Part shown: piece by piece, positions 4,670-9,571 of the stretch
Layout of the letters: every line of letters starts with the position of its first letter
How positions within the stretch are numbered: the first letter of the stretch is position 1
Source of the DNA: Oscillatoria sp. FACHB-1406
GTDB lineage: Bacteria > Cyanobacteriota > Cyanobacteriia > Cyanobacteriales > Spirulinaceae
Assembly (NCBI RefSeq): GCF_014698145.1
Contig: NZ_JACJSM010000023.1
Location: forward strand, 1-64,000
DNA length: 64,000 nucleotides
Reading direction: 5' to 3'
Position numbers and translations under genes: made by a program
The notes under the pieces: generated by a model
What the model was told of the DNA's origin: nothing
The model's database searches: none
Seen by the model: only the letters and a program-made list of their open reading frames with translations

Positions 4670-7600
4670 ATGAGGTCAATAGCTATCGCGTGCTTGCCCG
4701 GTTGCAGGGCGCAATTCCGTGCTTTCTCCGTAGCAACAACCGCGATCGCGGCTTTTTTCCCCTTTTTTCCGCTTTATGCTCAATCGATTGTAGCAGCGCC
4801 CGATGGTACGGGGACGCGGGTAGTGCAAACCGGCAATCTTTACACCATTGACGGCGGCACACAAGCTGGCGCAAACCTCTTCCAGAGTTTCTCAACTTTG
4901 GGACTGTCTCGCGAGGAAGTTGGCAATTTCCTGGCTTCACCAGAGGTTGAAAATATTTTGGGGCGGGTGGTTGGGGGCGAAGCTTCCACACTGGCTGGAT
5001 TAATTCGAGTTAGCGGTAGCAATGCAAATTTGTATTTAATGAATCCGGCGGGGATCGTTTTTGCTGCCGGTGCGACGTTGGATGTAGGGGGAAGTTTTTT
5101 CGCAACGACGGCGGACGCGATCGCGTTTAATGGGGGTTGGTTCTCGAGCCGCGAAACGAACGACTATTCATCGTTAATTGGTTCTCCTAGCGGTCTGCTC
5201 TTTTCGGATCCACAAAATGGTGCGATTGTCAATACCGCAAATTTAGCAGTCGGTGCGGGCAAACAACTTCAACTGAGCGGCGGTATAGTTATCAATGCAG
5301 GAAGCCTTAGCGCTCCGGGCGGGAAAATTACGCTAGCGGCAGTACCAGGGGGAAATCTGGCTCGCATCGGCAGCGAAGGAAGTATTTTAAGCTTCGTTGT
5401 TGCCCCCACTAACCCAAACGATAGCATCTCGCCCTTAGAACTGCCGCAATTATTAGCCAATGTTCGCGATGCAACACAACTGCAAGTTTCTGACGATGGG
5501 CGCGTTTGGCTGACGGGAAGCGATGTCCCCTTAACGGTAGAAGGGGGAACGGCGCTGGTGGCGGGGACGTTAAACGTAGAATCTGAGGGAACGGGGGGCG
5601 CGATCGATATTTTGGGGCCGAAAATCGATGTGGTGGGAGCGAGTTTAAATGCGTCCGGCGGGGAGGGTGGCGGTACGGTGCGAATTGGCGGCGAGGTTCG
5701 GGGAAGTGGCGCGCTACCGAGGGCAGAAGTCACCGCGATCGATGCAAATTCGCTAATTCGCGCCGATGCGAAGACTCGCGGAGATGGAGGGCGCGTTATC
5801 GTCTGGGCGGATAATTTGACTCGTTTTCAGGGTACGATTAGCGCCCGAGGGGCGATCGCGCCGACGGTTGCCTCCTCGGATGGCGGTTTTGTGGAAGTAT
5901 CGGGGCGGCAGGTTTTAGAGTTTCAGGGGCGCGTCGATACGCTTGCGCCGCAGGGTACAGTGGGTACGTTATTGCTCGATCCGAGCGAACTGGAAGTGGT
6001 AGCGGGGGGAAATATGCCTCCAGTGGGACAGCGTTCTTATATTAGCGCCGAACTGATTAACAGCGCGACGAGCAATGTGATTTTGCAAGCCAGCGATCGC
6101 GTTTTAATTAATGCAGCGATCGCGATTTCGACTTCAGGAGTCGGACTGGAAGCGCAATCTAACAATGGAATTTTTGTCAACGCCAATATCAGCACGAATA
6201 ACGGCTTTGTTAAGCTCAATGCCGATGCGGATGGTATCGGGGGCGGTGCAGTGGCGATCGAGAATGCGACGATTTCCACCGGGGAGGGCGCGATCGCAAT
6301 TGTGGGGCGCGGGCTGGACGGTACGGGCGGAACTGGCATTACCCTTAATAACAGCAGCCTCGCAACCACCAGCGGCAACATTACCCTCGAAGGAGTCGGC
6401 GCAACAGGCAGCCCGGGACAAGATCGCGCCGACGGATTGACGGGCGGCAAAAATAACCTCGGCGGTTCCGCAGGGCTAGCTGGCGGCAATGGGGGCGATG
6501 GCGGTGCGGGAATTTCCCTCACTAACAGCAGCATTTCTTCTACAACCGGCCTGGTTAGCTTAACCGGAACCGGCGGCGATGGCGGACAAGGGGGAATCGG
6601 CGGCGGCGGTGGCGGCGGCGGTAGTAATGTTAATAGTGCGGCATTGAGCGGCGGCGAAGGCGGTTTTGCAGGCGATCGCGGCGGACGGGGCAGCGCTAAT
6701 GCTAACAATGGCTTGGGCGGCGGGATAGCAGGAAGTGCGGGCGGTGGTAACGGCGGTGGCGGTTTGGCAGTCGATCGCGGTGGCGGCGGCGGTGGCGGCG
6801 GCGGCACGGGCGGAACTGGGGGATTGGGAAGTGTAAATGATGTCATGAATTCCGGCGCTGTCGGTATCAGGGGCGGTGCGGGCGGCGGCGGTGCTTCCAC
6901 CTTGACAAACGGCGGCGGCGGCGGTGGGAGTAACGGTTTCGGCGGCGGCGGCGGCGGTTCTAACCTCTTCAATAGTGGTGGCAATGGCGGACGGGGTGGA
7001 CCGCAAGGGGGTAATGGCGGAGCGCCCGGTTTGAGCGGTGCTAGCGGCAACGTGGGCGTGGGTAATGGCGGAATCGGGACGGGCGGTGGTGCCAACGGGC
7101 AAGATGGCTTCGCCGACGGAAGGGGTGGTAACGGCGGCATCCAAAATCCTAATAACGGCGGCGGCGGCGGCGGTGCAGGGGGCAATGGCGGTGCGGGCGG
7201 CAATGGCGGCGTTGGCATTGCCCTGAATAGCGGTAGCATCACGACTGCACCGAATCAACGGGTGTTAAACGCGATCGGCGGTAGCGGCGGTGCGGGAGGA
7301 AATGGCGGCGGCGGCGGCGGCGGTGGACGCGGTGTTGGCGGTGGCGGCGGCGGTGCGGGGGGTAATGGCGGTAGCGGGGGTGATGGCGGTACGGGGATAT
7401 TTCAGGGAGTCGCCTTCCAGTTTGTCATCCAAGAGCCTCTCCCTCCTGCGATCCCACCGACTCCAACTCCGGCTCCAACTCCAACAGTGCTGACAACACC
7501 CGCAATCCCAGGAAGCGCGATCGCAGATATTCCAAAAACCCTGCCCGCTTACCCCCAAGGGTTTCCAGAAGCGATCGTCAATCCTAAAGCTTCGGCACTC

Positions 7601-7726
7601 CCCGAAGTCCCCCTCGTCCTCGATTTAGAACCGTGCCAATCGTCCAATCGCGCCAGTCAGTTGTTAGGGCGTATGGTAGCAAATAACTCTGCTTTACGCG
7701 ATCGCCTCTGCGCTCCTCTGCGTTGA
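4670..7726 (+). CDS. TpsA-like filamentous haemagglutinin-family adhesin with extreme Gly-rich region
   Basis: A secreted protein of 1018 residues. A long N-terminal signal region ends near PLYAQS (about residue 39). It is followed by a two-partner-secretion domain (residues about 40-250) with the characteristic LYLMNPAGIVFAAGA block, where cyanobacterial members often have NPNG or NPAG. Residues about 250-600 continue as beta-helix repeats. Residues about 600-915 are dominated by GGxGG and GGGGGG runs like PGRS tracts. A Pro/Thr linker follows, and a tail with two cysteines (LEPCQ and RLCAPL). Secretion would need a TpsB/Omp85 transporter, which is not in the window. The paired Cys could anchor the C-terminus as in HMW1; this is inference. 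The gene stands alone and reads opposite to the acyltransferase. Confidence 0.9.
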   Translation: MRSIAIACLPGCRAQFRAFSVATTAIAAFFPFFPLYAQSIVAAPDGTGTRVVQTGNLYTIDGGTQAGANLFQSFSTLGLSREEVGNFLASPEVENILGRVVGGEASTLAGLIRVSGSNANLYLMNPAGIVFAAGATLDVGGSFFATTADAIAFNGGWFSSRETNDYSSLIGSPSGLLFSDPQNGAIVNTANLAVGAGKQLQLSGGIVINAGSLSAPGGKITLAAVPGGNLARIGSEGSILSFVVAPTNPNDSISPLELPQLLANVRDATQLQVSDDGRVWLTGSDVPLTVEGGTALVAGTLNVESEGTGGAIDILGPKIDVVGASLNASGGEGGGTVRIGGEVRGSGALPRAEVTAIDANSLIRADAKTRGDGGRVIVWADNLTRFQGTISARGAIAPTVASSDGGFVEVSGRQVLEFQGRVDTLAPQGTVGTLLLDPSELEVVAGGNMPPVGQRSYISAELINSATSNVILQASDRVLINAAIAISTSGVGLEAQSNNGIFVNANISTNNGFVKLNADADGIGGGAVAIENATISTGEGAIAIVGRGLDGTGGTGITLNNSSLATTSGNITLEGVGATGSPGQDRADGLTGGKNNLGGSAGLAGGNGGDGGAGISLTNSSISSTTGLVSLTGTGGDGGQGGIGGGGGGGGSNVNSAALSGGEGGFAGDRGGRGSANANNGLGGGIAGSAGGGNGGGGLAVDRGGGGGGGGGTGGTGGLGSVNDVMNSGAVGIRGGAGGGGASTLTNGGGGGGSNGFGGGGGGSNLFNSGGNGGRGGPQGGNGGAPGLSGASGNVGVGNGGIGTGGGANGQDGFADGRGGNGGIQNPNNGGGGGGAGGNGGAGGNGGVGIALNSGSITTAPNQRVLNAIGGSGGAGGNGGGGGGGGRGVGGGGGGAGGNGGSGGDGGTGIFQGVAFQFVIQEPLPPAIPPTPTPAPTPTVLTTPAIPGSAIADIPKTLPAYPQGFPEAIVNPKASALPEVPLVLDLEPCQSSNRASQLLGRMVANNSALRDRLCAPLR

Positions 7727-7817: not shown

Positions 7818-9065
7818 GTGATAAAGAAAATTATTGTTGAAAATTGGAAAAGTTATCGTTATGCCGAACTCCCGCTCGACCCCTTAACAATTTTAATTGG
7901 GAATAATGCGAGCGGTAAATCAAATCTCATTGAAGCCTTGGAGTATTTGAGTCGTATTTCTCGTGGATACAGCTTAGGAAGCCCCTTTCAAGACAATCTA
8001 GTAGACGTTACTCCCCTTCGAGGTTCTATAGAGTTATTAACCTTTCAAAGACAACGAAAATTTTCGCTCTCTGCAATCGTGCAAGGCAATTCTTCTCAAG
8101 AATACACTTACAAAATCGTTATTTCTCCTGGACAAATATTTAGCATTCAGGAAGAATCGTTAGTTTGCAACACAGACGATCGTAATTTATTTAAAGTAGA
8201 AAAGCCCGGTTATGGTTTAGCAGAACAGAGGCTGAAAATAAAAATTGGCGACCCAAAACAAGAAGAACCTTATGTATCAAGTCGCTCTTTATTTAGGGGA
8301 GAAAGATCGATATTAAGCGATTTATCTTTTTTGAATCCTGAGAATCAAGGCATTCAAAAACTGTTTGATGAAATCAAAGAAGTCACCCTAATTCTAATTA
8401 GTGTTTTTACTTTGAGTCCAAGTCCAGAACGCATGAGAGGTTACTCGCACTTATCTGATGTTATAGCAGCAGATGCTTCTAATATTGCGGGTGTTCTGTC
8501 TATGCAATCATCAGAACAAGCCCAAGAGTTTAAAAACTTAATGACTCGTTACTTCCACAATTCTCAGGAAGGCGACATTCGAGAAATTTGGGCAGAACCT
8601 GTAGGACGGCTTAAAGAAGATGCAATGTTGTACTGTCGCGAACAGTGGCCCGGAAGTAAAACTTTTGAAGTGGATGCGCGAAGTATGTCAGATGGAACGC
8701 TTCGGTTTGTGGCTATTTTAACAGCACTATTAACCAGACCGAAAGGAAGTCAACTGATTATTGAAGATATCGATAATGGTTTGCATCCGACTCGATTTAA
8801 ACAGCTTTTAGCTATGCTTAAAGAAATTGGCGAGAAACGAGAAATCGATGTATTAGTGACAACTCACAATCCTGGTTTTTTAGACGAACTCGATCCCGAA
8901 CTAATCCCCTTCACTGTTGTTTGCCATCGAGATAGTGAAACAGGGGAAAGCAAACTGACGCTTCTCGAAGAGATCGACCATTTTGCAAAGTTATTTGCTT
9001 CGGCTTCTTTAGGTAAACTGGCGATTCAAGGCGCGATCGATCGGGGGGCAGAAAGGACAAAATGA
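7818..9065 (+). CDS. AAA/ABC-type ATPase (SMC/RecF-like, AAA_21 class)
   Basis: A 415-residue ATPase. Walker A is GNNASGKS at residues 28-35, a signature-like SDGTLRF lies near residue 292, Walker B is LIIEDIDNGLHP, and a D-loop/H-loop like TTHNPGF follows. This is the arrangement of COG4637-type predicted ATPases, distant relatives of RecF and OLD proteins. The start is a GTG at 7818 with AAAGGGG upstream. Its stop overlaps the next gene's ATG in an ATGA, so the two are translationally coupled. Such ATPases commonly pair with a nuclease in phage-defence modules, hence a sensor/activator role is inferred. Confidence 0.85.
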   Translation: MIKKIIVENWKSYRYAELPLDPLTILIGNNASGKSNLIEALEYLSRISRGYSLGSPFQDNLVDVTPLRGSIELLTFQRQRKFSLSAIVQGNSSQEYTYKIVISPGQIFSIQEESLVCNTDDRNLFKVEKPGYGLAEQRLKIKIGDPKQEEPYVSSRSLFRGERSILSDLSFLNPENQGIQKLFDEIKEVTLILISVFTLSPSPERMRGYSHLSDVIAADASNIAGVLSMQSSEQAQEFKNLMTRYFHNSQEGDIREIWAEPVGRLKEDAMLYCREQWPGSKTFEVDARSMSDGTLRFVAILTALLTRPKGSQLIIEDIDNGLHPTRFKQLLAMLKEIGEKREIDVLVTTHNPGFLDELDPELIPFTVVCHRDSETGESKLTLLEEIDHFAKLFASASLGKLAIQGAIDRGAERTK

Positions 9066-9571
9066 GAAAAGTTTTGATTTTCGATACTTGCGTCCTTTGC
9101 GTTCTTTTAAAAATACCCAACATGGAAGAATGCGGTAAAGTACCGAATGATTGGAATTTTATTAAACTTGAGGAAAAATTAAAGCAAGAAGAAAGCCAAG
9201 AAACGGTTTTTGTCCTTCCGTTGGCTGCAATTATTGAAACGGGAAATCATATTTCTCAAGCATCATCTAAACGCCGGGAATTAGCAGAAAAATTTAACTA
9301 AATTGTTGGTAAGACGGCAAATGAGACTTCTCCTTGGGTAGCATTTGGGGAACAAACCGAACTTTGGAATAAACCGGGATTGGAAAAGTTAGCGAGTATG
9401 TGGGGAGAACAAGCTCACACTAAACTGTCTTTAGGAGATACAACAATTCGTATTTTGGGCGAGCATTATGCAAGAAAGGGCTATCAAGTTGAATTTTTAA
9501 CGGGCGATGCTCAACTGAAAGCTTATCAACCCGAAACTAAATCAATGAAAAATCGCAGAAGTGACTCCTAA
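9062..9571 (+). pseudogene. PIN-like nuclease partner interrupted by an in-frame TAA
   Basis: The frame begins at the ATG overlapping the ATPase stop. It reads MRKVLIFDTC, meets a TAA at 9299-9301 (codon 80), then continues in the same frame without shift to a stop at 9569. The two halves together (169 codons) look like one PIN domain: candidate metal-binding residues D8, E59 (AAIIETGN), D126 (LSLGDTTI) and D149 (FLTGDAQL) fall in the usual order. D126 and D149 lie after the stop, so the short product should be inactive. One base change would restore a sense codon. A sequencing error or readthrough is possible. Family assignment is by motif only. Confidence 0.65.

What the first reader, a model, noticed from the sequence alone, without database searches (positions are those of the whole stretch)
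7818..9571. ATPase coupled to a PIN-like nuclease gene carrying an in-frame stop
The second gene starts inside the ATPase stop (ATGA), and its two halves are in the same frame around TAA 9299-9301. The acidic quartet D8, E59, D126, D149 of a PIN domain is split by the stop. So either the effector was inactivated, or the stop is read through. An SMC-like ATPase plus PIN nuclease is a plausible two-gene defence type resembling the Septu and PARIS layout.
Basis: partly seen in the sequence, partly recalled or inferred. Interest (0 to 1): 0.65.

Follow-up and report, generated by a model that had tools for sequence, protein, structure and literature searches.

The report
Broken toxin half of defence pair
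This cyanobacterial locus is a copy of an already catalogued but untested two-gene phage-defence candidate (an ATPase plus a PIN-type nuclease) whose nuclease gene has recently been cut in half by a stop codon; across relatives the nuclease is lost far more often than the ATPase, which suggests that the nuclease is the costly, toxic part.

Summary
GTG 7818-9065 encodes a 415-aa SMC/Rad50/PtuA-type ATPase. ATG 9062 (ATGA overlap) starts a PIN gene interrupted in frame by TAA 9299-9301; the frame reopens to 9571. Each half separately matches the complementary part of one PADLOC profile, PDC-M07B (1-72 and 76-152 of 154), and the ATPase matches PDC-M07A (E 2.5e-137). So this is a member of a catalogued, experimentally untested defence candidate, not a new system. 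Full-length relatives are about 150-174 aa and none ends near codon 79. The quartet D8/E59/D126/D149 is invariant in 42 of 42 sequences, and a relative's model has a VapC/PIN fold (Z 12.8). The stop removes D126, D149 and half the fold: the effector is inactivated, probably recently. Nothing supports read-through. The same genome holds a second, intact M07 pair. Across about 380 related genomes I found about 64-76 intact pairs, about 20 loci with an intact ATPase and a broken nuclease, and 3-4 of the reverse. In two species sharing an ancestral nuclease deletion, the ATPase is still under purifying selection (dN/dS about 0.1). Best reading: B is the toxic effector, A restrains it and can persist alone; inferred, not shown.

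The parts
7818..9065 (+). Gene A: 415-aa SMC/Rad50/PtuA-type ABC ATPase, PDC-M07A; intact, with P-loop GNNASGKS, SDG signature, Walker B IIEDID and HNP motif
   Evidence: AAA_21 E 1.3e-29; PDC-M07A E 2.5e-137; motifs invariant in 30 sequences; fold
9062..9065 (+). ATGA overlap of gene A stop and gene B start
9062..9301 (+). Gene B, first half: 79 aa then TAA; holds D8 and E59 and the ETGNH motif; S10 (invariant in 41 others) is C here
   Evidence: PDC-M07B positions 1-72, E 7.4e-24
9299..9301 (+). In-frame premature TAA at codon 80, in a variable column of the family alignment
9302..9571 (+). Gene B, second half, same frame, no nearby in-frame start codon: 89 aa holding D126 and D149; ordinary terminator TAA 9569-9571
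   Evidence: PDC-M07B positions 76-152, E 3.2e-16

Best explanation
The locus is a degenerate copy of the two-gene candidate defence system PDC-M07. A (intact) is an SMC/PtuA-type ATPase that most likely binds and restrains B, and senses infection. B, when intact, is a VapC-like PIN ribonuclease that would be released or activated by A and stop growth by cutting RNA (tRNA or rRNA by analogy with VapC). Here a nonsense mutation at codon 80 has removed two of the four metal-binding acids and the C-terminal half of the PIN fold, so B is dead and only the ATPase remains. SHOWN: pair identity, interruption, PIN fold and SMC/PtuA-like ATPase fold (models), invariant catalytic quartet, recurrent preferential loss of B in relatives, and purifying selection on A after B loss in one species pair. 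INFERRED: that B is toxic, that A restrains it, that the pair is antiphage, and that the target is RNA. The confidence given is for the identity and the inactivation; for the toxin-plus-restrainer logic I would say about 0.55.
For: PADLOC profiles for both genes and for each half of B. About 20 full-length close relatives in the first survey and 103 of 381 genomes with a B match in the order survey. Acidic quartet 42/42. PIN fold; SMC/PtuA fold. Intact second pair in the same genome, G000:C4 108284-110038, B 148 aa. The pair is found on plasmids in Bacteroidota, Vibrionaceae and Lactococcus; in Vibrio it sits between hsdS and hsdR of a type I restriction operon beside an AbiE-type toxin gene and an integrase gene. 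A/B asymmetry: script count 19 B-only-broken, 3 A-only-broken, 64 intact; binomial at 18/22 to 22/26 gives p 0.002-0.0003 for equal risk and below 1e-6 for risk by gene length. G456 and G527 share the same ancestral B deletion (457 nt, 91% identical downstream), yet A has dN 0.037 and dS 0.367. The codon-80 stop looks recent: post/pre-stop identity ratio 0.90 against 0.79-1.04 for intact relatives.
Against: No phage or toxicity assay is known to me for PDC-M07: no paper in the library names it, and PDCs are described as unvalidated (PMC12988326). The window copy lies among ordinary housekeeping genes, not in a defence island. The stop is seen in one draft assembly; reads could not be checked. 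The asymmetry count is not corrected for phylogeny and some loci lie near contig ends.
Confidence: 0.82

Rival explanations
1. The TAA is read through (suppression or recoding), so full-length B is made at a low, perhaps regulated, level.
For: The part after the stop is no more eroded than the same part in intact relatives; both later acids are kept.
Against: A recent mutation explains the lack of erosion equally well. None of the intact relatives has a stop there; downstream RNA is no more structured than shuffles (z +0.70); other broken copies have different lesions at different sites. An otherwise invariant serine (S10) is already changed to C.
Confidence: 0.06
2. Sequencing or assembly error; B is really intact.
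For: Single draft assembly (42 contigs); only one codon is affected.
Against: A clean in-frame stop rather than a homopolymer indel; genome reported 99.93% complete with 0.29% contamination; S10C is an independent deviation; interruption of B is common in relatives.
Confidence: 0.08
3. The two halves are now two separate proteins (split effector), the second from an internal start.
For: In-frame TTG 9380 and ATG 9398 exist after the stop.
Against: Both lie 26-32 codons downstream, and no Shine-Dalgarno-like sequence is evident just upstream; no relative shows a split B as a conserved arrangement.
Confidence: 0.03

Closest known systems
PDC-M07 (PADLOC putative defence candidate M07, genes M07A and M07B)
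   Same: Both genes match their profiles over nearly full length; order, adjacency and overlap as in relatives.
   Different: B is interrupted in this copy; the candidate itself has no published test that I could find.
Septu (PtuA ATPase + PtuB HNH nuclease)
   Same: ATPase model resembles PtuA (8eea Z 20.2, 289 residues, rmsd 4.5); two-gene ATPase + nuclease layout.
   Different: The nuclease is PIN/VapC-like, not HNH; the ATPase fold is equally close to Rad50 and SMC heads.
PARIS (AriA ATPase + AriB Toprim tRNase)
   Same: ABC-type ATPase gene followed by a small nuclease; AriA profiles hit A (E 2.7e-28). In PARIS the AriA hexamer sequesters AriB and releases it on infection (PMC11455837, PMC12409363).
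   Different: The nuclease is PIN, not Toprim; A scores 456 bits for M07A against 98 for AriA.
VapC (PIN ribonuclease toxins of VapBC)
   Same: PIN fold (VapC20 5wzf Z 12.8) and four invariant acids.
   Different: Partner is an SMC-type ATPase, not a small VapB DNA-binding antitoxin; sequence similarity to Pfam PIN is marginal.

Membership tests
PDC-M07 | Gene A matches an M07A profile better than other ATPase models | tested here: met
   456 bits (PDLC04391) against 124 for the best non-M07 model (HEC-01A)
PDC-M07 | Gene B matches an M07B profile | tested here: met
   Read-through 9.7e-46; halves 7.4e-24 and 3.2e-16
PDC-M07 | A and B adjacent, same strand, as a pair | tested here: met
   4-nt overlap; same layout in relatives
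PDC-M07 | Both genes intact (needed for a working pair) | tested here: not met
   TAA at codon 80 of B: a broken member
PDC-M07 | Antiphage activity | not testable with these tools
   No assay; PDC-M07 named in no paper in the library
PIN-domain nuclease (VapC-like) | PIN fold | tested here: met
   Intact relative's B: Z 12.8 to VapC20 and a list made almost wholly of VapC/PIN structures
PIN-domain nuclease (VapC-like) | Four conserved acids | tested here: met
   D8, E59, D126, D149 invariant 42/42, though split by the stop in the window
PIN-domain nuclease (VapC-like) | RNase activity | not testable with these tools
   No assay
Septu | PtuA-type ATPase | tested here: inconclusive
   Fold alike: 8eea Z 20.2, but SMC/Rad50 heads tie; the sequence is far below the PtuA equivalog cut-off (29.7 bits, cut-off 500)
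Septu | PtuB HNH nuclease | tested here: not met
   Partner has a PIN fold
PARIS | AriB Toprim nuclease | tested here: not met
   Partner has a PIN fold

The most novel reading that the evidence does not exclude
In PDC-M07 the ATPase has a selected function of its own and outlives its nuclease, for example as an orphan antitoxin that protects against incoming M07 nucleases, or as a second partner for another pair in the cell. The window would be a freshly made orphan beside an intact M07 pair elsewhere in the genome. Support: about 20 loci with B broken and A intact, about 10 more with A and no B, and dN/dS about 0.1 for A after a shared ancestral B deletion in two genomes with no other detectable B.
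Probability: 0.35. Interest if true: 0.55.

Novelty: new member of a known kind. Interest (0 to 1): 0.36.

Why it matters
PDC-M07 is catalogued only as a computed candidate and I found no mechanism on record. The PIN fold, the invariant acidic quartet and the lopsided loss of the nuclease give a concrete, cheap prediction: B alone is toxic, A restrains it. The kept ATPase in B-less lineages also poses a testable question about orphan immunity genes. The window's own broken copy, taken alone, is an ordinary case of effector inactivation.

Tried and rejected
(1) Second stop-bearing pair in the same genome: the genome search reported '1 TAG' inside the C4 paralogue, but the TAG is its ordinary terminator and that B is intact at 148 aa; rejected. 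(2) Conserved stop or programmed recoding: broken copies carry different lesions (TAA at codon 17 in G629, TGA in G386 and G506, frameshifts in G413/G425, G466, G517, G095, deletions in others), so no shared recoding site. Three stops (window, G386, G506) fall within a few residues of each other; different codons and lineages, taken as chance. (3) RNA structure after the stop: none. (4) Sequence search of B against solved structures found nothing; Pfam PIN hits are marginal; only the fold search settled PIN. (5) My first count (7 to 1) was enlarged, because a wider sample also showed broken A genes; the asymmetry held. (7) Defence island around the window copy: none found. (8) G320 lies at a scaffold gap and G080 and G601 near contig ends; counted as uncertain. 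(9) Papers on an ATPase-PIN two-gene defence system: none found.

Full report
Observation. The finding is accurate to the base. The ATPase ORF runs from GTG 7818 to TGA 9065 (415 aa); the next gene starts at ATG 9062 inside ATGA; TAA 9299-9301 is in frame at codon 80, and the same frame stays open to TAA 9569-9571. A run of 89 open codons after the stop arises in 0.12% of shuffles. More decisively, the two halves, searched apart, match adjacent parts of one profile, PDC-M07B: residues 1-78 to positions 1-72 (E 7.4e-24) and the second half to 76-152 of 154 (E 3.2e-16).

Identity. The ATPase is PDC-M07A (456 bits, E 2.5e-137; next best non-M07 model 124 bits) and the read-through B is PDC-M07B (E 9.7e-46). 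PDC-M07 is a PADLOC putative defence candidate. Such candidates come from guilt-by-embedding and are described as unvalidated (PMC12988326); no paper in the library names PDC-M07. So the pair is a catalogued kind, not a new one.

Intact relatives. In a survey of 386 genomes of the phylum, intact B proteins are about 150-174 aa with no stop. The closest, G390 in the same family, is 171 aa and 57% identical. In a 42-sequence alignment D8, E59, D126 and D149 are invariant, as are T9, G61, N62 and H63; codon 80 lies in a variable column; S10, invariant in the other 41, is C in the window.

Fold. AlphaFold2 on the G390 B with 20 relatives gives pLDDT 88.8. Its structural neighbours are almost all VapC/PIN proteins, led by VapC20 (Z 12.8, 127 residues, rmsd 2.4). 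By homology the 79-aa product keeps the first strands and helices and lacks the C-terminal helices, the last strand, D126 and D149, so it cannot form the PIN active site (inference). The ATPase model (pLDDT 85.4) matches Rad50 and SMC heads (Z 21-22) and PtuA of Septu and of retrons (Z 19-20).

When did it break? The part after the stop is not more eroded than in intact relatives: post/pre identity ratio 0.90 for the window, 0.79-1.04 for the others. That fits a recent mutation. It would also fit read-through, for which nothing else speaks: no intact relative has a stop there, and no unusual RNA structure follows (z +0.70).

Second copy. The same genome has another M07 pair on contig C4 (A 436 aa, B 148 aa, GTGA overlap), intact and only about 31-34% identical to the window pair. 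The 'TAG' first reported inside that B is its own terminator.

Defence context. The window copy sits between a TPS-secreted protein gene and, after one short ORF of unknown family, a coaBC-type flavoprotein gene, with no other defence gene found nearby, in a dip of G+C (about 0.40 against 0.48 for the window), as expected of acquired DNA. Elsewhere M07 pairs are found on plasmids of Segatella, Lactococcus, Vibrio and Photobacterium. In Vibrio campbellii the pair lies between hsdS and hsdR of a type I restriction operon, beside an AbiEii-type toxin gene and an integrase gene (PADLOC identity confirmed).

Which gene is lost? I searched the same 381 genomes of the order with both profiles and read the DNA of the loci. 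The scripted count gives 64 de-duplicated intact pairs, 19 loci with intact A and broken B, 3 with broken A and intact B, and 3 with both broken. By hand, adding loci that the script's de-duplication or thresholds dropped, the figures are about 76, about 20-22 and 4 (G394, G593, G643, G651). About ten further loci have an intact A and no detectable B. For 18/22 to 22/26 the binomial p is 0.002-0.0003 under equal risk and below 1e-6 if risk follows gene length, A being about 2.6 times longer. Caveats: not phylogeny-corrected; some loci lie near contig ends or gaps (G320, G080, G601). The lesions differ in kind and place, so they are mostly independent events.

A without B. G456 and G527 keep only the first codons of B followed by the same unrelated DNA (457 nt, 91% identical), so they share one ancestral deletion, and neither has a B elsewhere at E 1e-5. 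Since they split, A has dS 0.367 and dN 0.037, a ratio of about 0.10, much as between two species with intact pairs (0.040/0.466). So in that lineage the ATPase stays under purifying selection without its nuclease.

Mechanism. Best supported: B is a PIN ribonuclease effector, toxic when free; A is an SMC/PtuA-type ATPase that holds it and senses infection, as AriA does with AriB in PARIS (PMC11455837, PMC12409363). Shown: folds by model, catalytic quartet, pair conservation, lopsided loss, selection on A alone in one lineage. Inferred: toxicity, restraint, antiphage function, RNA target. In the window the effector is inactivated and the ATPase remains, beside an intact distant pair elsewhere in the genome.

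Verdict. The system is already catalogued, and this copy is a degenerate member. The lopsided decay is the part worth following.

Noticed in passing
G000 contig C4: 108284-110038 (L045 4285-6038): Second, intact PDC-M07 pair in the same genome, of a different subfamily (about 31-34% identity), with GTGA overlap.
   Followed up: yes
L211 (G456) and L212 (G527): Shared ancestral deletion of B with A still under purifying selection (dN/dS about 0.1), no other B found in either genome.
   Followed up: partly
L182 (G517), B near residue 129: B is frameshifted at a run of nine A; could be a phase-variable tract, a mutation or an assembly error.
   Followed up: no
L134 (Vibrio campbellii plasmid pIFL1_3): An M07 pair embedded between hsdS and hsdR of a type I restriction operon with overlapping genes.
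   Followed up: partly
window 4670-7726: Large TPS-domain (two-partner secretion) protein with long Gly-rich repeats, directly upstream of the pair.
   Followed up: no
L052 (G386), L187 (G506) and the window: Premature stops in B within a few residues of each other in three different loci (TGA, TGA, TAA); taken as chance.
   Followed up: partly
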